This document shows, piece by piece, positions 9,612 to 61,013 of a stretch of 64,000 nucleotides of DNA; position 1 is the stretch's first letter; each line of letters opens with the position of its first letter. The notes under the pieces are model-generated. The model was not told the origin of the DNA. It did not search any database and saw nothing but the letters and a program-made list of their open reading frames with translations. The translations under genes and the position numbers were made by a program. Origin of the DNA: G965261475 sp965261475 [NCBI: bacterium] (GTDB lineage Bacteria > SAR324 > XYD2-FULL-50-16); assembly GCA_965261475.1 (NCBI GenBank), contig OZ253454.1:62001-126000 (forward strand). The letters run 5' to 3'.

Positions 9612-10604
9612 TTAATCTTCAAACTTGAGCGGGCGTGCTAGCAGAGCTTGCAGTGTTTCTTCTATAGATAAATTTTTGTAGAGCACGAGGTAAACAGCCT
9701 CAATCAGCGGTGTATCTATTTGATGTTTTTGTGCTAGTTGAAACAGCGCTTTGGTAGTAAAATATCCCTCACAAATTTTACCGCCCCATTCTTGTCTAAT
9801 TTGTTTAGTGCTTTTGCCCGTGCCTATTTGTATGCCAAAGTTTTTATTTTGACTACTTGCTTGAGCGTAGCAAGTTAGCGCTAAATCACCCAAGCCACTC
9901 AAACCATAGAGCGACGCTTCGGTTATTTGTAGCACCCTACAGAGTTTTTTGATTTCGTAAATTCCTCTAGTAATTAAAATAGCAAGAGCCTCCTCTCCTA
10001 GTTTTTTACTCTCTATCACTCCTGCAATAATTGCAAAAGTGTTTTTGACTGCTCCTAGGAAACAAGTACCTTTTAAATCTGTACTCTGATAGATACGAAA
10101 CCAAAGCGAGCTCAGCTCTAGCTGTAGCATTTTTCCTATTTTTTTGTTTTGACAAGCAAGAGTCTCAGCAGCTGGTTTGCCCGCTAGCAGTAAACCCTCT
10201 GGAAAACAAGGACCTCCCAAGTGTGCTAGTGTATTTTGCGGGAAAAATTCTGCTAAAATATCCGTTGCAAAAAGCAGTGTAGTTTGCTCTATACCCTTGT
10301 TAATACTCATCAAAATTTGCTCTTTTTTGACTTCTTTGATAGTTTGCAGCTGCTCCCTAAAAAAAGGAATTGGCGTAGCAAAAATAATTAGCTCTGTGTC
10401 TGGAGGCAGAGCTGCTTGCGGTGGTAGTAATTGGATTTGAGGCGGTAGTATAAAATTTTTAAGATGACTAGAGTACTGGTGTTTGACGATAAACTGATAG
10501 CTACTTTTTCTAGAGCAAACCAAGCTAGTTTGATGACCTATTTGTGAACAGTAACAAGCCATAGCCGAGCCCCATCTACCAGATCCTGAAACTACGATAT
10601 TCAT
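9612..10604 (-). CDS. gpsA: Glycerol-3-phosphate dehydrogenase [NAD(P)+]
   Basis: Reduces dihydroxyacetone phosphate to sn-glycerol-3-phosphate for phospholipid synthesis; cytosolic. 330 aa, normal length. N-terminal Rossmann motif GSGRWGSAMA (residues 7-16), the SINKGIE strand, HLGGPCFPEG, the catalytic Lys in LGAVKNTFAIIAG (about 186-198) and the C-terminal GLSGLGDLALTCYA with the substrate-binding GIQIGTGKS region. It begins 8 nt after the lepA stop and is probably translated from the same mRNA. The lepA-gpsA pair has no metabolic logic I can see. Confidence 0.95.
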   Translation of the reverse strand: MNIVVSGSGRWGSAMACYCSQIGHQTSLVCSRKSSYQFIVKHQYSSHLKNFILPPQIQLLPPQAALPPDTELIIFATPIPFFREQLQTIKEVKKEQILMSINKGIEQTTLLFATDILAEFFPQNTLAHLGGPCFPEGLLLAGKPAAETLACQNKKIGKMLQLELSSLWFRIYQSTDLKGTCFLGAVKNTFAIIAGVIESKKLGEEALAILITRGIYEIKKLCRVLQITEASLYGLSGLGDLALTCYAQASSQNKNFGIQIGTGKSTKQIRQEWGGKICEGYFTTKALFQLAQKHQIDTPLIEAVYLVLYKNLSIEETLQALLARPLKFED

Positions 10605-12655: not shown

Positions 12656-15298
12656 CTACTCTACTTGTAGTCCGTTTTTCCATTTCTCAGTATGCGAGAA
12701 TTTACCATCTTTATAGATTTTCTGCTCTCCGTGTTTTTTACCATCTTTGTAGTTTCCTACGCTCGCTAGCTTGCCATTATCGTGGTAGTCTCTCCACTCT
12801 CCGTGCGCTTTACCTGCTATGAAGTTTCCTATGCTCCGTAACTTACCATTATTGTAGTATAGTTTCCCCTCTCCGTGTTTTTGACCATCTTTGTAGTTGT
12901 CTATGCTCTCTAGCTTACCATTATCGTGGTAGAATTTCGCCTCTCCATTACCATCTTTGAAGTTTCCTACGCCCCATAGCTTGCCATTATTGTGATACCA
13001 TGTCACTTCTCCGTGCCATTTAGCATCTTTGTTGTTTTCTATGCGCTTTAGCTGACCATTAGGGTGATACCATTTCACCTCCCCGTTTAATTCACCATTT
13101 ATGTAGTTTTTTATGCTCTCTAGCTTACCATTATCGTGGTAGAATTCCGCCTCTCCGTTACCATTCTTAAAGTTTCCTATGCCCCATAGCTGACCATTAT
13201 CGTGATACCATTTCAACTCCCCGTTTAATTCACCATCTTTGTAGTTTTTTATGCGCTCTAGCTTACCATTATCGTGGTAGTCTCTCCACTCTCCGTATCT
13301 TTTACCATCTATGTAGTTTCCTATGCTACTTAATTCACCATTATCGTGATACCATTTCACCTCCCCGTTTAATTCACCATTTATGTAGTTTTTTATGCTC
13401 TCTAGCTTACCATTATCGTGGTAGAATTCTGCCTCTCCGTTACCATTCTTAAAGTTTCCTATGCCCCATAGCTGACCATTATCGTGATACCATTTCAACT
13501 CCCCGTTTAATTCACCATCTTTGTAGTTTCTTATGCGCTCTAGCTTACCATTATCGTGGTAGTCTCTCCACTCTCCGTATCTTTTACCATCTATGTAGTT
13601 TCCTATGCTACTTAATTCACCATTATCGTGATACCATTTCACCTCCCCGTTTAATTCACCATCTTTGTAGTTTCTTATGCGCTCTAGCTTACCATTATCG
13701 TGGTAGTCTCTCCACTCTCCGTGTTTTTCACCATCTATGTAGTTTCCTATGCTACTTAATTCACCATTATCGTGATACCATTTCACCTCCCCGTTTAATT
13801 CACCATTTATGTAGTTTTTTATGCTCTCTAGCTTACCATTATCGTGGTAGGTTTTCCACTCTCCGTGCCATTTACCATCTTTGTAGTTTTCTATGCGCTC
13901 TAGCTTACCATTATCGTGGTAGGTTTGCCACTCTCCGTGTTCTTTACCATCTTTGTAGTTTTCTATGCGCTTTACCTGACCATTATCGTGGTAGGTTTGC
14001 CACTCTCCGTGTTCTTTACCATCTTTGTAGTTTTCTATGCGCTTTACCTGACCATTATCGTGGTAGTATTTCCACTCTCCTTGTTCTTTACCTTCCTTGT
14101 AGTTTTCTATTCGCTCTAGTTTACCACTAGGGTAGTATTCTCTCAACTCTCCGTGCTTTTTACCATCTTTGAGGTTTCCTATGCCCTCTAGCTGACCATT
14201 AGCATAGTAGCCTTTCCACTCTCCGTGCTCTTTGCCTGCTATGTAGTTTCCTATGCCCTTTAGCTTACCATTATCATGGTAGATTTTTGCTTCTCCGTTC
14301 GCTTTGCCATCTTTGAAGTTTCCTATGCTCTCTAGCTTACCATTAGGGTGATACCATTTCACCTCTCCGTGCTTTTTACCTTCCTTGTAGTTTACTATGC
14401 GCTCTAGCTCACCATTATCGTGGTAGTATTTCCACTCTCCGTGTTCTTTACCATCTATGTAGTTTTCTATGCGCTTTACCTTCCCATTATCATGGTAGAT
14501 TTTCTGCTCTCCGTGCTTTTTACCCTCTTTGTAGTTTCCTATGACCTCTAGCTCATCATTATCGTGGTAGCCTTTCCACTCTCCGTGCAATTCACCATCT
14601 TTGTAGTTTCCTATGCTTTTTAGCTGACCATTATCGTGGTAGGTTTTCTGTTCTCCGTGTTTTTTACCTGCTATGTAGTTTGTTATGCTCTCTAGCTCAC
14701 CATTATCGTGGTAGGTTTTTGCCTCTCCATGCAATTCACCTGCTATAGAATTTATTATTTGCTTTAGCTCACCATTGGAGTAGTATATTTTCTGCTCGCC
14801 GTGCGTTTTACCATCTATGTAGTTTTCTATGTTCCGTAACTGACCATTAGTATAGTAGCCTTTCAACTCTCCGTGCAGTTTATCTGCTATGTAGTTTTCT
14901 GTGCCTTTTAACTTACCATTAGGGTGGTAGAGTTTTACCTCTCCGTGCCATTTATCATCTTTGTAGTTTCCTATGCTCTTCAGTTGACCATTAGGGTGAT
15001 AGGTTTTCCACTCTCCGTGCGCTTTACCATCTTTGAAGCTTCCTATGCTCCGTAACTTACCATTATTGTAGTAGAGTTTTACCTCTCCGTGCCATTTATT
15101 ATCTTTGACGTTTCCTATGCTCTCTAGCTGACCATTAGGATGGTAGGTTTTCTGCTCTCCGTGCTTTTTACCATCTATATAGTTTTCTATGCGCTCTAGT
15201 TTACCATTAGGGTAGTAGCTTTTCTTTTGTACTGAACATGCTGTGCTGATTACTCCTGTTAGCAGTAGTGTTAGCAACAGTAGTATAATATTTTTCAT
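12656..15298 (-). CDS. Giant MORN_2 (YwqK-like) repeat lipoprotein
   Basis: 880 aa. Signal peptide with lipobox (STAC, Cys at residue 21), so a lipid-anchored protein of the inner or outer membrane. From residue 28 to the end it is nothing but repeats: 35 complete units plus a 19-residue terminal partial. Thirty-two units are 24 aa with consensus YHDNGKLxxIxNYKDGKxHGExx; three (units 25, 29, 32) are 22 aa, lacking two residues before NGEA. This is the MORN_2/YwqK repeat, often annotated antitoxin-like although function is unproven. Units 17 and 18 are identical; units 23-26 and 27-30 are near-identical. Lysine, glutamate and aromatic residues alternate, as expected for a beta-hairpin solenoid. 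No partner toxin is adjacent: neighbours are valS and lepA. Confidence 0.92.
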   Translation of the reverse strand: MKNIILLLLTLLLTGVISTACSVQKKSYYPNGKLERIENYIDGKKHGEQKTYHPNGQLESIGNVKDNKWHGEVKLYYNNGKLRSIGSFKDGKAHGEWKTYHPNGQLKSIGNYKDDKWHGEVKLYHPNGKLKGTENYIADKLHGELKGYYTNGQLRNIENYIDGKTHGEQKIYYSNGELKQIINSIAGELHGEAKTYHDNGELESITNYIAGKKHGEQKTYHDNGQLKSIGNYKDGELHGEWKGYHDNDELEVIGNYKEGKKHGEQKIYHDNGKVKRIENYIDGKEHGEWKYYHDNGELERIVNYKEGKKHGEVKWYHPNGKLESIGNFKDGKANGEAKIYHDNGKLKGIGNYIAGKEHGEWKGYYANGQLEGIGNLKDGKKHGELREYYPSGKLERIENYKEGKEQGEWKYYHDNGQVKRIENYKDGKEHGEWQTYHDNGQVKRIENYKDGKEHGEWQTYHDNGKLERIENYKDGKWHGEWKTYHDNGKLESIKNYINGELNGEVKWYHDNGELSSIGNYIDGEKHGEWRDYHDNGKLERIRNYKDGELNGEVKWYHDNGELSSIGNYIDGKRYGEWRDYHDNGKLERIRNYKDGELNGELKWYHDNGQLWGIGNFKNGNGEAEFYHDNGKLESIKNYINGELNGEVKWYHDNGELSSIGNYIDGKRYGEWRDYHDNGKLERIKNYKDGELNGELKWYHDNGQLWGIGNFKNGNGEAEFYHDNGKLESIKNYINGELNGEVKWYHPNGQLKRIENNKDAKWHGEVTWYHNNGKLWGVGNFKDGNGEAKFYHDNGKLESIDNYKDGQKHGEGKLYYNNGKLRSIGNFIAGKAHGEWRDYHDNGKLASVGNYKDGKKHGEQKIYKDGKFSHTEKWKNGLQVE
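13070..13633 (-). repeat. 282-bp tandem duplication inside the MORN_2 gene
   Basis: Protein units 23-26 (13633 down to 13352) and 27-30 (13351 down to 13070) are 94 aa each and differ by one residue (Arg/Lys in the second unit). The DNA is correspondingly near-identical by eye, which marks a recent duplication of a four-unit block and a substrate for further size change. Confidence 0.85.
13922..14065 (-). repeat. Two identical 72-bp tandem units inside the MORN_2 gene
   Basis: Bases 13922-13993 and 13994-14065 are identical by eye and encode units 18 and 17 of the MORN_2 array. Perfect DNA identity, including synonymous positions, points to very recent slippage or unequal recombination. Confidence 0.9.
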
Positions 15299-30748: not shown

Positions 30749-30896
30749 GGCTTATGAAGTGTTTTTTAAAAAAAACTATCTAGCTAATACTGTTAATAAT
30801 TTTAGAACATAAAAGCAAAAAGTTGTATTTTGTTGTTGTAATTCTTAGTGGTTGAGTATAGAAGTTAAGATCGTAAAAGTTATTTATTTTATAAAA

Positions 30897-31616
30897 ATGC
30901 CTATACATCTTAGAGCCAAAAAGGGACAGGTCGCTCCTTTGGTTATTGTCCCTGGAGAAGCTGGAAGAGCAAAGTTTATCGCTGAGAATTTTTTGACAAA
31001 TACTCAGTGCTATACGGAATATCGTCATCTTTTAGGTTATAGTGGTACCTACAAGGGTTTGTCTGTTTCCGTACAGACCACAGGTATGGGTATTCCAAGT
31101 AGCATGATTGTCTTCGAAGAGCTAGTGATGCTAGGAGCTAAAACTATTATTCGTATAGGCACCTGTGGAGGGCTACAAGCATATCTCAAAACGGGAGATA
31201 GTATAGTAGGAATCTCTGCGTGGGGAAGTAGTTCTACTATTGCTAGAATTGTAGATAATAGAGATTATGCTCCTCTTGCTGACGTTGGTCTTTCTAATCA
31301 CTTGTTCCAAAATATTTCAAAAAAACAACAATCCTACATAGGTCCTATTATCTCTAATGATTTATTTTATTTAGATTTGAAGCAACATTTACACCCCCTC
31401 ACAAAATTAGGCTGTTTAGCTGTGGAGATGGAGGCTGCTGGACTTTTTGCTCTGGGTGCTAAACATCAAATTACTACCGGTTGTATTTTAACTGTGTCTG
31501 ACCTAGTGTATTCTGATGATCTAGTAAGAGCAGATGATAGTGTAATTTTAGAGGGAGTAGTAAAAAATACAGAGGCAATCTTAGAGACTTTTTATGAAAC
31601 AAGAAACAAATCTTAA
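30897..31616 (+). CDS. deoD: Purine nucleoside phosphorylase, copy 1
   Basis: Phosphorolysis of purine (deoxy)nucleosides in salvage. 239 aa from ATG 30897 (a TTG at 30852 in frame is less likely; the shared duplication begins at 30879). Hexameric PNP/UDP family, resembling Thermus PNP: MPIHLRAKKGQ, phosphate loop PGEAGRAK (19-26, with Glu for the usual Asp and Arg24 kept), Arg43 in TEYRH, RIGTCGGL, the ribose motif VEMEAAG (176-182) and the catalytic Asp in TVSDL (202). All key residues are present, so I expect activity. A nearly identical paralogue follows 125 nt downstream. Confidence 0.9.
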   Translation: MPIHLRAKKGQVAPLVIVPGEAGRAKFIAENFLTNTQCYTEYRHLLGYSGTYKGLSVSVQTTGMGIPSSMIVFEELVMLGAKTIIRIGTCGGLQAYLKTGDSIVGISAWGSSSTIARIVDNRDYAPLADVGLSNHLFQNISKKQQSYIGPIISNDLFYLDLKQHLHPLTKLGCLAVEMEAAGLFALGAKHQITTGCILTVSDLVYSDDLVRADDSVILEGVVKNTEAILETFYETRNKS

Positions 31617-31741: not shown

Positions 31742-32461
31742 ATGCCTATACATCTTAGAGCTAAAAAGGGACAGGTCGCTCCTTTTGTTATTGTTTGTGG
31801 GGAAGGAGCAAGGGTAAAATTTATCGCTGAGAATTTTTTGACAAATACTCAGTGCTATACGGAATATCGTCATCTTTTAGGTTATAGCGGTACCTACAAG
31901 GGTTTGTCTGTTTCCGTACAGACCACAGGTATGGGTATTCCAAGTAGCATGATTGTCTTCGAAGAGTTAGTAATGCTAGGAGCTAAAACTATTATTCGTA
32001 TAGGCACCTGTGGAGGGCTACAAGCATATCTCAAAACGGGAGATAGTATAGTAGGAATCTCTGCGTGGGGAAGTAGTTCTACTATTGCTAGAATTGTAGA
32101 CAATAGAGATTATGCTCCTCTTGCTGACGTTGGTCTTTCTAATCAATTGTTCCAAAATATTTCAAAAAAACAACAATCTTACATAGGTCCTATTATCTCT
32201 AATGATTTATTTTATTTAGATTTGAAGCAACATTTACACCCCCTCACAAAATTAGGCTGCCTAGCTGTAGACAATGAGGCTGCTGGGCTTTTTGCTCTGG
32301 GCGCTAAACATCAAATTACTACTGGTTGTATTTTAACTGTTTCTGATTTAGTGTATCTTGATGATCCTGTGAGGGCAGATGATAGTGTAATTTTAGAGGG
32401 AGTCAAGGAGAATGTAGAAGTTACTTTGGAAACTTTTTGTCATACAGCAAATATATCTTAA
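31742..32461 (+). CDS. Purine nucleoside phosphorylase paralogue, copy 2 (diverged active site)
   Basis: 239 aa, tandem duplicate of the preceding gene. The fold-determining core is unchanged, Arg24, Arg43 and Asp202 are kept, but the phosphate loop changes from PGEAGRAK to CGEGARVK and the ribose/base motif from VEMEAAG to VDNEAAG (Glu177Asp, Met178Asn). The C-terminal 30 residues also differ at about ten positions. The reading frame is intact, so it is not a plain pseudogene. It may have altered base or sugar preference, or be losing function. The stop lies 2 nt before the PEP carboxykinase ATG. Confidence 0.85.
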   Translation: MPIHLRAKKGQVAPFVIVCGEGARVKFIAENFLTNTQCYTEYRHLLGYSGTYKGLSVSVQTTGMGIPSSMIVFEELVMLGAKTIIRIGTCGGLQAYLKTGDSIVGISAWGSSSTIARIVDNRDYAPLADVGLSNQLFQNISKKQQSYIGPIISNDLFYLDLKQHLHPLTKLGCLAVDNEAAGLFALGAKHQITTGCILTVSDLVYLDDPVRADDSVILEGVKENVEVTLETFCHTANIS

Positions 32462-57941: not shown

Positions 57942-59192
57942 CTACAAGGCTTTCTTTGGTTTGATGATTTTTGTTGGCGTTTTTTGAGCTTTGTAGATAA
58001 TGACAGGGGTAGATTTTTCTAATACAGAATTTTTGTTAATAATAATTTTAACAATTTTTTTATCAGAAGGAACTTCAAACATTAAGTCTAGCATTAGCTT
58101 TTCTACTACGGCTTTTAAACCCCTTGCACCAATTTTCTTTTTACTAGCGATATTTGCTATTTCTTGTAGAGCATCTTTTTGGAAAGTTAATTCTACATTA
58201 TTAAGCTCAAAAAGTTTTTGATATTGTTTAGTGAGTGCATTTTTTGGTTTTTCTAAAATATAACAAAGATCCTGAATCGTTAGTTCGTTTAAAACACTAA
58301 TATTAGCTAATCGTCCTACAAATTCTGGGATTAAACCGTAGCGGATTAGATCGCTATATTGCACTTGTTGTAGTAGTGCTGTAGTTTTTGGTTTTTTGTT
58401 TTTTAGTTTGTTATCAAACCCTATTTTTCTTTCTCCGATTCTTTGCGCGATAATGTTTTCTAATCCTATAAACGCACCGCCTAAAATAAAAAGGATATTT
58501 TTTGTATCAATCTCAACAAAACTTTGTTGTGGATGTTTTCTACCACCTTGAGGCGGAATATTAGCTACCGTACCTTCAATGATTTTTAAAAGTGCTTGCT
58601 GTACGCCTTCTCCGCTGACATCTCTAGTGATAGAAAGATTTTCACTTTTTCTAGCTATTTTATCTATTTCGTCTATGTAGATAATTCCTTGACAAGTTTT
58701 TTCTACATTATGGTTAGCGGAACGGTAAAGCTTCACGAGTATATTTTCTACATCTTCACCTACATATCCTGCTTCTGTGAGAGTTGTAGCGTCAGCAATA
58801 GCAAAGGGAATATGCAAAATTTTTGCGAGGGTTTGTACTAACAAAGTTTTACCACTACCAGTTGCCCCCACCAATAATATATTAGATTTTTGAATTTCTA
58901 TATTATCTAGTTTTGCAGCATTTAAAATTTTTTTATAATGATTGTATACAGCAACAGCTAAAGTTTTTTTTGTGTTGTGTTGTCCTATAACATAAGCATC
59001 TAAAAGCTTATAGATGGTTTTAGGCTCTAGTAGTACTTTACTAGCTTTTTTAGTACTTGTTTTTTTAGCCGTAAGAATTTTTGTGCAAAAATAAACACAT
59101 TCGTCACAAATATAAGTTTTATTGTTTCCTGAGATCAATTTTTTGACCTCAGGTTCGGTTTTTTTACAAAAGGAGCATAGTATTTTTTCCAT
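57942..59192 (-). CDS. clpX: ATP-dependent unfoldase ClpX
   Basis: AAA+ hexamer that unfolds substrates for ClpP. 416 aa. N-terminal zinc-binding domain with CSFCKK and CDECVYFC, Walker [12 protein letters not shown] (about 110), pore-1 loop GYVGEDVE, Walker [14 protein letters not shown] loop GGRKHPQQ, and an IGF loop within [11 protein letters not shown] (about 268-278), the element that docks in ClpP pockets. Thus it should still bind a ClpP ring although the ClpP encoded 7 nt upstream lacks its catalytic serine. Confidence 0.95.
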
Positions 59193-59199
59193 AGTATTT

Positions 59200-59781
59200 T
59201 TAGTTTCTTTTTTCTACTACTTTATCAACAATACCGTAAGCTAAAGCTTCGTTGCTATTTAAGTAAAACTCTCTTTCTATATCTTGATTGATAGCGTGAG
59301 CAGTTTTTTTTGTATGTTTTGCTAGTATAGAAGATAAATTTTGTTTTATATTTAAAATTTCTTTAGTTTGAATTTGAATATCAGATGCTTGTCCGTCTAA
59401 ACCTCCTACAGGTTGGTGTAAAAGTATTTTGGTGTTTTTTAAAGCAATTCTTTTTCCTTGAGCACCGCTTGCGAGTAAAATGGCAGCTAAGTGGAAAGCT
59501 TTACCTACACAAATTGTTTGCACGGGACTTTGAATATATTGCATAGTATCGTAAATAGCTAGTCCATCAGAAACTTGTCCTCCGTGAGAATTTATATAAA
59601 AATTAATATCTGCTTCTGGATTGTCTGCCTCTAAATAAAGCATTTGAGCTATGATCAGGCTAGCGCTATAGTTATTAATTTCTGTACCTAAAAATAGAAT
59701 TCTATCTTTTAATAATCTAGAATAGATGTCATAAGCTCGCTCACCTCTGTTACTTTGTTCGATGACGTAGGGAATATTCAT
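59200..59781 (-). CDS. clpP: ClpP-family protein with two of three catalytic residues replaced
   Basis: 193 aa from ATG 59781, which overlaps the tig TGA as ATGA (upstream Met at 59802 is unneeded). The start [18 protein letters not shown] and the LFLG, DTMQYI, GKR and HQP segments make it unmistakably ClpP, colinear without gaps with the E. coli enzyme in mature numbering. The triad Ser97-His122-Asp171 reads His97-His122-Glu171: the nucleophile segment ASMGA is FHLAA and the RD pair is RE. INSPGGS is INSHGGQ. It should be proteolytically inactive or reworked (compare ClpR of cyanobacteria and plastids). The codons, CAC at 59491-59493 and GAG at 59269-59271, were read from the DNA. Confidence 0.9.
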
Positions 59782-61013
59782 ATTCTTTGAGCGCTTTTGC
59801 AAATAAAATTTAATACCTTCTCTTCTTCCATTTGGTTACGTATAGAATCAATAATATTTTGACTGTGATCACTAGCTAGTAATTGATCAGGTTTAATATT
59901 ATATGAGTTTGCAACGCTAGCGATAGCTTCGCTTAATTCTTGCTGAGGAACAGAAATTTTATGTTCTGCAATCATTTGAGCTAGCACAAACTGGTAGCGT
60001 AAGCTATCAATAGTATTTTTTTCTAGTTCTTTTTGATTTTTTTTGTCTATATTTTGTTTGTCTTGTTGCAATATTTGTTGGATTTTGGAATTAAATAATT
60101 CTTCTGGAACATCAAAATTGACATTTTTAATAATAGCTTCTTGCACTAATTTCTGCTCGTCATGGTCATTTTGTTTTTTTTTCATATTTGCTAAGGATTT
60201 TCTACTAAAATCTAGAAGACTTTTTTCATCAACTACTTCGAGTGCAATTTTTTGATAAAATTCTTTATTTTTTGGGGCATCTACTTTGCGAGTTATGGAT
60301 AACACTTCTATTTTTAATTTAATTTGTTTACCAGCAATATCACGAGAAAGACTATAGGGCGAAACTACCAATTCTAGCTCTTTTTTTTCTTTTACTTTCA
60401 TTTGCAGCAGGGCTTTGTCTAGCTCGGGAGAGAGCTCATTGGAGCCAACATAGTAAAAAATAGTTGTTTCTCTTTGTTCTCGTTTTTGAGCTATCTCTTG
60501 AAATTCTAGTTTGAGTTGGACTCTATTGCTTTTTTCTACTAGTTCACTTTGCTCTTTGTAATCGTAGTTTTGGAGACTAGTTAAAAGAGCGTAATTAGCA
60601 ATTTCTTTTTCTTGGAGATTTAATTCAAATTTTTTTATTTGTATTACTTCTTCCCAATTTGGCATTTTAAATTCTGGAAAAACTTCAAAACTTGCTCTAA
60701 ACAGGAAGGGATTGTTTTTTTCAATTTTTTTTGAATCTATTTGTGGTTTTGTAACTACTTTTAATAGGTGTTTTTGTATAGCTTTATTGAGATACTCTGG
60801 AATAATTGTATTTTTAACTTCTATTGCTATATCCTCAAAAAATCTTTTTTCCATAAGGTTTTTAGGAAACTTGCCCTTACGAAATCCTTTAATAGATATT
60901 TTATTTTTTAAATCTTGATAAACTTTATTGGCAGTTGTTTGCATAACTTCTATAGGCACTGTGATGGCAAGCTCCCTTTTTAGTTTACCTAAATTTTTTA
61001 CTTCTGTTTGCAT
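59778..61013 (-). CDS. tig: Trigger factor
   Basis: Ribosome-bound folding chaperone. 411 aa. Ribosome-docking signature GFRKGKFPKN (about 42-51), a PPIase-like middle domain (about 145-245) with weak FKBP signature, and a long helical C-terminal arm rich in Lys, Gln and Asn. Placed before clpP and clpX in the common tig-clpP-clpX order, and after a cluster of tRNAs. ATG 61013 lacks a ribosome-binding site. Confidence 0.92.
   Translation of the reverse strand: MQTEVKNLGKLKRELAITVPIEVMQTTANKVYQDLKNKISIKGFRKGKFPKNLMEKRFFEDIAIEVKNTIIPEYLNKAIQKHLLKVVTKPQIDSKKIEKNNPFLFRASFEVFPEFKMPNWEEVIQIKKFELNLQEKEIANYALLTSLQNYDYKEQSELVEKSNRVQLKLEFQEIAQKREQRETTIFYYVGSNELSPELDKALLQMKVKEKKELELVVSPYSLSRDIAGKQIKLKIEVLSITRKVDAPKNKEFYQKIALEVVDEKSLLDFSRKSLANMKKKQNDHDEQKLVQEAIIKNVNFDVPEELFNSKIQQILQQDKQNIDKKNQKELEKNTIDSLRYQFVLAQMIAEHKISVPQQELSEAIASVANSYNIKPDQLLASDHSQNIIDSIRNQMEEEKVLNFICKSAQRI

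What the first reader, a model, noticed from the sequence alone, without database searches (positions are those of the whole stretch)
59200..59781. Operon-encoded ClpP lacks catalytic Ser97 and Asp171
In the tig-clpP-clpX operon the ClpP frame aligns without gaps to E. coli ClpP, yet position 97 is His (CAC at 59491-59493) and position 171 is Glu (GAG at 59269-59271); His122 stays, and the INSPGG loop is INSHGG. ClpX next door keeps its IGF docking loop. Established: ClpR subunits of cyanobacteria and plastids are inactive members of mixed rings. Inference: either an active ClpP is encoded elsewhere and forms a hetero-oligomer with this one, or the ClpX-ClpP pair has been rebuilt for a non-proteolytic task. 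An inactive ClpP as the sole copy in the canonical operon would be new to me.
Basis: partly seen in the sequence, partly recalled or inferred. Interest (0 to 1): 0.85.

Follow-up and report, generated by a model that had tools for sequence, protein, structure and literature searches.

The report
Inactive ClpP beside ClpX in SAR324
In one branch of the uncultured SAR324 bacteria the ClpP gene that sits next to ClpX has lost its protein-cutting residues but is otherwise tightly preserved, and most related genomes carry a second, intact ClpP elsewhere, so it probably serves as a docking and structural subunit that works with an active partner.

Summary
The tig-clpP-clpX ClpP (59200-59781, -) aligns end to end with E. 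coli ClpP but has His66, His97, His122 and Glu171. It is neither a sequencing error nor a decaying gene. The window's genome is not held; LepA and ClpP trees place the window in one clade of the phylum of SAR324 bacterium W9. All 11 other genomes of that clade have the operon with the nucleophile lost (Asn97; ten also Arg122, one Glu171), while the other 36 of 47 operon-type copies in 52 genomes are S-H-D. Of 54 positions nearly invariant in 110 ordinary ClpPs, only 66, 97 and 122 changed in three or more of the 12 rows; dN/dS was 0.03 and 0.09 in the two computable pairs. Eight of the 11 genomes also encode a second S-H-D ClpP; three show none, for one of them because the contig ends there. 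The second copy lacks docking Tyr62, which the inactive copy keeps. Best reading: an independently arisen ClpR-like docking subunit of a ClpX-ClpR-ClpP2 machine, like the asymmetry of M. tuberculosis ClpP1P2. Inactive ClpP paralogs are known: a new variant of a known kind.

The parts
59200..59781 (-). clpR-like gene: ClpP homologue of 193 aa without the catalytic triad (H97-H122-E171)
59584..59586 (-). codon 66 CAC, His in place of Pro (INSHGG)
   Evidence: Pro in 9, Tyr in 2, His in 1 of 12 clade rows
59491..59493 (-). codon 97 CAC, His in place of the nucleophile Ser; Asn (AAT/AAC) in the 11 relatives
59416..59418 (-). codon 122 CAC, catalytic His kept (Arg in 10 of 11 relatives)
59269..59271 (-). 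codon 171 GAG, Glu in place of Asp (also Glu in W9; Asp in the other 10 relatives)
57942..59192 (-). clpX, with zinc finger and ATPase motifs
   Evidence: NF003745 597 bits; PF06689; motifs
58416..58424 (-). IGF ClpP-docking loop of ClpX (aa 257-259)
59778..61013 (-). tig, trigger factor; stop overlaps the clpP start (ATGA)
   Evidence: TIGR00115 201 bits, cut-off 180

Best explanation
The gene encodes a ClpR-like subunit: a ClpP that lost its catalytic Ser in the ancestor of one SAR324 clade and is kept as a structural and ClpX-docking part of the protease. It most likely forms a heptameric ring (or mixed rings) that stacks with an active ring made of a second ClpP encoded elsewhere. ClpX docks on the ClpR face through its IGF loop and threads substrates into a chamber where only the second ClpP cuts. 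Shown: loss of the triad, clade-wide conservation, low dN/dS, operon partners in place, an S-H-D second ClpP in 8 of 11 relatives, docking Tyr62 kept in ClpR but not in ClpP2. Inferred: a ClpP2 in the window's own genome, hetero-assembly, and which ring docks ClpX.
For: LepA tree (quick, SH-aLRT): window plus the 11 genomes with inactive operon ClpP form one set (97*), apart from 19 other genomes of the phylum (99*) and 14 outgroups. EF-G: the ten best-scoring matches in the phylum are ten of those 11 genomes. ClpP tree without active-site columns: same 12 rows, 100/96; with the 31 active operon copies of the phylum, 99/95. Triads: 11 of 47 operon-type copies lack it, all 11 in this clade and beside tig and clpX. 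Second ClpP, S-H-D, in 8 of 11 clade genomes and 35 of 52 genomes in all, plus 2 fragments. Of 54 positions at least 95% conserved in 110 ordinary ClpPs, 43 are unchanged in all 12 rows and only 66, 97 and 122 changed in three or more. dN/dS 0.026 and 0.085 for two of six pairs tried. Tyr62 in 12 of 12 ClpR and 31 of 31 active operon ClpPs, 0 of 35 second ClpPs. Precedent: in M. tuberculosis ClpP2 docks the chaperones and its Ser is dispensable while ClpP1 cuts (PMC9067928).
Against: No expression, assembly or activity data. The window's genome is not held. G044, G045 and G046 show no second S-H-D ClpP; ugd, its neighbour in four relatives, is absent from all three while found in the positive controls G047, G049, G053, but is also absent from W9, which has ClpP2. 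Shared shifts in the two subunits are not significant (2 positions, p 0.29); only ClpP2 shifts are enriched in the handle helix (7 of 13, p 0.005; ClpR 4 of 14, p 0.29). The ClpX tree does not group the inactive-clade rows. Other precedents differ: C. difficile ClpP1 and ClpP2 are active as homo- but not hetero-tetradecamers, and in M. xanthus the operon ClpP1 is the active, essential one and ClpP2 is deletable (PMC11423568 passages).
Confidence: 0.7

Rival explanations
1. The inactive ClpP forms its own catalytically dead tetradecamer on ClpX (a holding chamber, decoy or regulator), while ClpP2 works separately, for instance with ClpA.
For: The two subunits are very divergent (second copies 31-38% identical to the window protein). 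A ClpA over its cut-off is found in 10 of 11 genomes tested, including all 8 tested of the inactive clade. C. difficile ClpPs are reported active as homo- but not hetero-tetradecamers (PMC11423568 passage).
Against: All 35 second ClpPs lack Tyr62, so on their own they may dock an ATPase poorly. In the Chlamydia and M. tuberculosis pairs the two subunits work as one complex (PMC6773864 passages; PMC9067928).
Confidence: 0.15
2. The window's species has no active ClpP: ClpX with this dead chamber is a non-proteolytic unfoldase or storage machine.
For: No other ClpP was noticed among the ORFs of the 64-kb window (read by eye). G044-G046 show no second S-H-D ClpP in their assemblies, and for G044 and G045 a true loss is not excluded.
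Against: The window is a small part of a genome. In G046 the neighbouring VWA gene starts 254 bases from a contig end, on the side where clpP2 lies in G048, so its absence there is uninformative. The other 8 of 11 relatives have ClpP2.
Confidence: 0.06
3. Sequencing or assembly error, or a decaying pseudogene.
For: None found beyond the bare change at catalytic codons.
Against: Eleven other genomes in the clade lack Ser97 in the same operon. Window His97 CAC is one base from AAC, one of the relatives' Asn codons, and Glu171 GAG is shared with W9. The frame is open over 193 codons and dN/dS is low in two pairs of relatives.
Confidence: 0.01
4. An acquired cyanobacterial or plastid-type ClpR.
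For: In a 54-row tree with 9 cyanobacterial ClpR, ClpP alone does not reject a joint clade (p-AU 0.50).
Against: The 9 cyanobacterial sequences have Gly97, Thr66 and Met or Leu171, and the four printed have an insertion after INSTG, all absent here. PRK12552 score 186 against cut-off 263. The tig-clpP-clpX order is kept in all 12. The tree with 79 other ClpPs joins it to the active copies of its own phylum, 99/95 (cyanobacterial ClpR not included).
Confidence: 0.02

Closest known systems
ClpR of cyanobacteria (Synechococcus ClpP3/R) and plastids
   Same: Catalytically dead ClpP paralog kept together with an active ClpP (PMC4673316 and PMC7966870 passages).
   Different: Different replacements and no insertion; the neighbouring ATPase gene here is clpX, whereas ClpP3/R works with ClpC. 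Common descent is not settled by tree.
Mycobacterium tuberculosis ClpP1P2
   Same: Two ClpPs; one docks the chaperones and its catalysis is dispensable, the other cuts (PMC9067928).
   Different: In M. tuberculosis the docking subunit ClpP2 still has its Ser (Ser110); in this SAR324 clade it is lost in nature.
Chlamydia trachomatis ClpP1/ClpP2 with ClpX
   Same: Two clpP genes in distinct operons forming a hetero-tetradecamer that works with ClpX (PMC6773864 passages).
   Different: Both chlamydial subunits contribute to peptidase activity.
[quoted passage not shown]
   Same: Multi-clpP non-photosynthetic bacteria with one allele lacking predicted critical residues (PMC9067928).
   Different: Which residues and which locus are not given in the text read (the figure is in a supplement, not seen); SAR324 is not among the three named.

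Membership tests
ClpP (peptidase family S14) | ClpP fold and sequence profile | tested here: met
   PF00574 246 bits, NF001368 284.5 against cut-off 249; equivalog TIGR00493 269 is under its cut-off 308.6. AlphaFold2 mean pLDDT 89.9; the 50 Foldseek matches shown are ClpPs, best E 8e-22, TM 0.62, rmsd 12.0
ClpP (peptidase family S14) | Ser97-His122-Asp171 triad | tested here: not met
   His97, His122, Glu171
ClpR (functional kind: inactive ClpP paralog in a mixed core) | Triad lost, other conserved residues kept | tested here: met
ClpR (functional kind: inactive ClpP paralog in a mixed core) | An active ClpP paralog in the same genome | tested here: inconclusive
   Seen in 8 of 11 relatives; the window's own genome is not held
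ClpR (functional kind: inactive ClpP paralog in a mixed core) | Physical mixed-ring or stacked-ring complex | not testable with these tools
   Needs biochemistry
Cyanobacterial/plastid ClpR lineage | Match to the cyanobacterial ClpR profile (taken to be PRK12552; that it models ClpR is recalled, and fits the missing Ser97 in the 9 cyanobacterial members read) | tested here: not met
   186 bits against cut-off 263; the 20 of 59 genomes with a match over the cut-off score 340-437
Cyanobacterial/plastid ClpR lineage | Insertion after the INSTG loop, and Gly97 | tested here: not met
   Both in the cyanobacterial sequences (9 of 14 loci usable; Gly97 in 9 of 9, insertion seen in the 4 printed), neither in the window protein
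Cyanobacterial/plastid ClpR lineage | Common descent in a tree | tested here: inconclusive
   p-AU 0.50 for a joint clade, 0.515 for a clade with the active copies of its own phylum, 54 rows
SAR324 | Marker-gene placement with W9, titled SAR324, and its phylum | tested here: met
   LepA (TIGR01393 937 bits): window inside a 12-row set (97*) within the 31 rows on the SAR324 side (99*), 14 outgroups. The phylum is that of W9 by the tool's grouping; the tool does not name it

The most novel reading that the evidence does not exclude
In the window's own lineage the old active site has gained a new job: His66, His97, His122 and Glu171, three of them changed from the ancestral residues, may form a metal or ligand site, turning the ClpX-docking ring into a sensor or regulator of the protease (or, if no second ClpP exists, a non-proteolytic ClpX chamber).
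Probability: 0.05. Interest if true: 0.85.

Novelty: new variant of a known kind. Interest (0 to 1): 0.52.

Why it matters
Why some Clp cores keep dead subunits is poorly understood (so stated for ClpR in PMC9067928). Here a dead subunit arose within the standard tig-clpP-clpX operon, in a phylum whose other members mostly carry two S-H-D ClpPs. That gives before-and-after pairs for testing whether the ClpX-docking ring needs catalysis at all, which is the asymmetry proposed for M. tuberculosis.

Tried and rejected
Sequencing error or pseudogene: rejected. ClpP2 in G044-G046: sought with the W9 ClpP2 protein and with two neighbour genes. ugd (TIGR03026 448 bits) gave no match in the three (without a control; repeated with controls G047, G049 and G053, which matched). 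The VWA gene (PF13519) was found only in G046, near a contig end (without a control genome). W9 lacks ugd yet has ClpP2, so absence of ugd does not by itself prove a gap. Coevolution of the two subunits: not significant at shared positions. Cyanobacterial descent by tree: not decidable. ClpX tree: window joins W9 (96*), but the 11 inactive rows need two changes (20 active and 25 outgroup rows used, short ClpXs dropped). Distances in the AlphaFold model: no coordinate file was found, so the His/Glu site was not measured. Papers: none of the library holds both SAR324 and ClpP; none holds five of six terms on ClpR, ClpX, trigger factor and inactive subunit; further searches.

Rows left out: five operon ClpPs of equal or nearly equal score (L127-L131) from the ClpP trees, the conservation count. 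One search used 18 of 35 second ClpPs and 18 outgroups. The LepA tree used 30 of 51 genomes with a match. L181 and L182 (fragments) are out, as are L183 and L184. 5 of 14 cyanobacterial loci were dropped by the script. Rows in the scripts were trimmed to the part locally similar to the window protein, and X was scored as A (5 of the loci L099-L184 hold N).

Full report
Observation. The ClpP frame is 59200-59781 on the minus strand, 193 aa from the ATG that overlaps the tig stop. It scores 284.5 bits against NF001368 (cut-off 249) and 246 bits against PF00574, and 269 against the equivalog TIGR00493 (cut-off 308.6). phmmer pairs residues 3-193 with 3-193 of 1tyf, so numbering is shared with no net gap. 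Residue 97 is His (59491-59493), 122 His (59416-59418), 171 Glu (59269-59271) and 66 His (59584-59586). ClpX next door (57942-59192) keeps its zinc finger, Walker A and B, GYVG, RKH, IGF (58416-58424), the IPEFVGR box and GARGLK (motif names recalled).

Who carries it. The window's own genome is not held. Among these 92, 85 are S-H-D with Pro66, 5 have Asn171, one has Ser66, and only L001 (SAR324 cluster bacterium W9, one of two at 61%) lacks Ser97: it reads Asn97-His122-Glu171, in the same tig-clpP-clpX order. The other 61% hit, L002, is S-H-D.

The phylum of W9. The search covered 52 genomes that the tool puts in W9's phylum (150 asked for); the group is called SAR324 here after W9's title. 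The ClpP loci were read. 47 genomes have an operon-type copy beside tig: 36 are S-H-D and 11 are not. clpX was also found in the fetched stretch in 39 of the 47, including all 11 inactive ones; in 8 active ones it was not. The 11 are G001 (W9, N-H-E) and G044-G053 (N-R-D). One genome (G018) shows only a second copy and four show no ClpP at E 1e-20. A second, divergent ClpP (31-38% identical to the window's) is present in 35 genomes, all 35 S-H-D, and as a fragment in 2 more. It falls in one group in the tree (18 of the 35), so it looks like an old paralog of the phylum, not a response to the loss.

One loss, in one clade. A LepA tree of the window, 30 of the 51 genomes with a hit and 14 outgroups puts the window with exactly the 11 genomes whose operon ClpP is dead (97*), next to 19 others of the phylum (99*). 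The ten best EF-G matches in the phylum are ten of the same 11. A ClpP tree of 122 rows, built without the active-site columns, gives the same 12 rows (100/96) and joins them to the active operon copies of the phylum (99/95); the program warns that window and W9 are both long branches. From the residues one may infer Ser97 to Asn once in the ancestor; then His122 to Arg in the ten; Asp171 to Glu in W9 and the window; then Asn97 to His and Pro66 to His in the window (codons; the order is inference). The ClpX tree is weaker: window with W9 (96*), the inactive rows not in one clade.

Kept under selection. Of 54 positions at least 95% conserved in 110 ordinary ClpPs (31 of the phylum, 79 others; a 55th, the gapped end position, was set aside), 43 are unchanged in all 12 clade rows. 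Only 66, 97 and 122 changed in three or more rows; 157 and 171 changed in two, the other six in one. dN/dS is 0.026 (G045/G046, dS 1.07) and 0.085 (G052/G053, dS 1.36); the other four pairs tried were saturated at silent sites. The gene is a preserved protein without its catalytic machinery, not debris.

The active partner. Eight of the 11 clade genomes (G001, G047-G053) have a second S-H-D ClpP. In G047, G048, G049 and G053 it lies beside ugd, and in the first three also beside a VWA gene (family searches on the G048 proteins only); in W9 it lies beside gpsA. G044, G045 and G046 show none. ugd is not found in these three, while controls G047, G049 and G053 match; but W9 also lacks ugd and has ClpP2. 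The VWA gene is found only in G046, starting 254 bases from a contig end on the side where clpP2 would lie. So for G046 absence is uninformative, and for G044 and G045 a gap or a true loss are both open. In the window gpsA (9612-10604) has lepA, not clpP, upstream, so the W9 arrangement is not shared.

Division of labour. The inactive copy keeps Tyr62, Ile90, Leu114 and the N-terminal P4, V6, E8 in 12 of 12 rows. The second ClpPs have Tyr62 in 0 of 35 and Leu114 in 11 of 35, while keeping Ser97, His122, Asp171 and Arg170 in 35 of 35. P4 and V6 are not seen in any of the 35 rows, but these were trimmed to the similar part (E at column 8 in 16). The five full N-termini read are charged and do not show the canonical motif. 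The docking role of these positions is recalled; PMC9067928 used tyrosine and hydrophobic-patch mutations for it. In M. tuberculosis, patch mutations block growth only in ClpP2, the catalytic Ser is needed only in ClpP1, and a forced-asymmetry strain grew like controls. The SAR324 clade looks like that forced asymmetry fixed in nature. Against this, C. difficile ClpPs are reported active as homo- but not hetero-tetradecamers, and in M. xanthus the operon ClpP1 is the active and essential one (PMC11423568 passages). ClpA is also present over its cut-off in 10 of 11 genomes tested, so ClpX may not be the only partner.

Structure. AlphaFold2 on the window protein with 39 relatives gave mean pLDDT 89.9, lowest in block 121-130 (62). 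Foldseek's best match is a chain of the Pseudomonas aeruginosa ClpP1/ClpP2-ClpX structure (9ndj, E 8e-22, TM 0.62, rmsd 12.0). The high rmsd is probably a hinge of the handle helix in a monomer model (inference).

What is known. ClpR subunits are described for cyanobacteria, plastids and apicoplasts (PMC7966870 passages). In 9 usable cyanobacterial sequences residue 97 is Gly, 122 Asn or His, 171 Met or Leu; the four printed have an insertion after INSTG, which the window protein lacks. A tree with those sequences does not settle common descent either way (p-AU 0.50 and 0.515). Non-photosynthetic bacteria with one clpP allele lacking critical residues have been noted (Nocardia asteroides, Streptomyces coelicolor, Leptospira interrogans; PMC9067928). 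No paper in the library holds both SAR324 and ClpP. So the kind is known; the lineage, the place in the canonical clpX operon and the before-and-after comparison within one phylum are what seems new, as far as these searches reach.

Limits. Everything functional is inference. The window's own second ClpP has not been seen.

Noticed in passing
window 30852-31616 and 31742-32461 (+): Two tandem DeoD-type purine-nucleoside phosphorylase ORFs (200 and 187 bits against NF004489, both under its cut-off 230), alike at 221 of 240 aligned positions, end included: a recent duplication.
   Followed up: partly
window 12656-15298 (-): 880-aa probable lipoprotein made largely of MORN_2 repeats (PF07661, 18 stretches, 580 bits).
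   Followed up: partly
L173 4794-5561 (-), W9 second ClpP: The second ClpP of W9 carries a charged C-terminal tail of about 60 residues with DRRxHxxDRR-type repeats, absent from the second ClpPs of G047, G048, G049 and G053 that were read.
   Followed up: no
L183 and L184 (G049:C55, G046:C424): ORFs of 563-566 aa holding a distant ClpP-like domain (27% identity) with Ser kept, possibly a phage head-maturation protease (guess; a family search on L183 failed on coordinates).
   Followed up: no
L014, L040, L058, L064, L077: Five otherwise ordinary ClpPs have Asn in place of catalytic Asp171, as recalled for Listeria ClpP1.
   Followed up: no
window 57942-59192 (-): The window's ClpX is on a long branch (1.36 changes per column) although the motifs tested are intact; its ClpP branch is also long.
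   Followed up: partly
L099, L100, L103, L108, L116, L119, L124, L132: Eight active operon-type ClpPs of the phylum lie beside tig with no clpX found in the fetched stretch; they belong to genomes whose best EF-G match is only about 51% or less.
   Followed up: no
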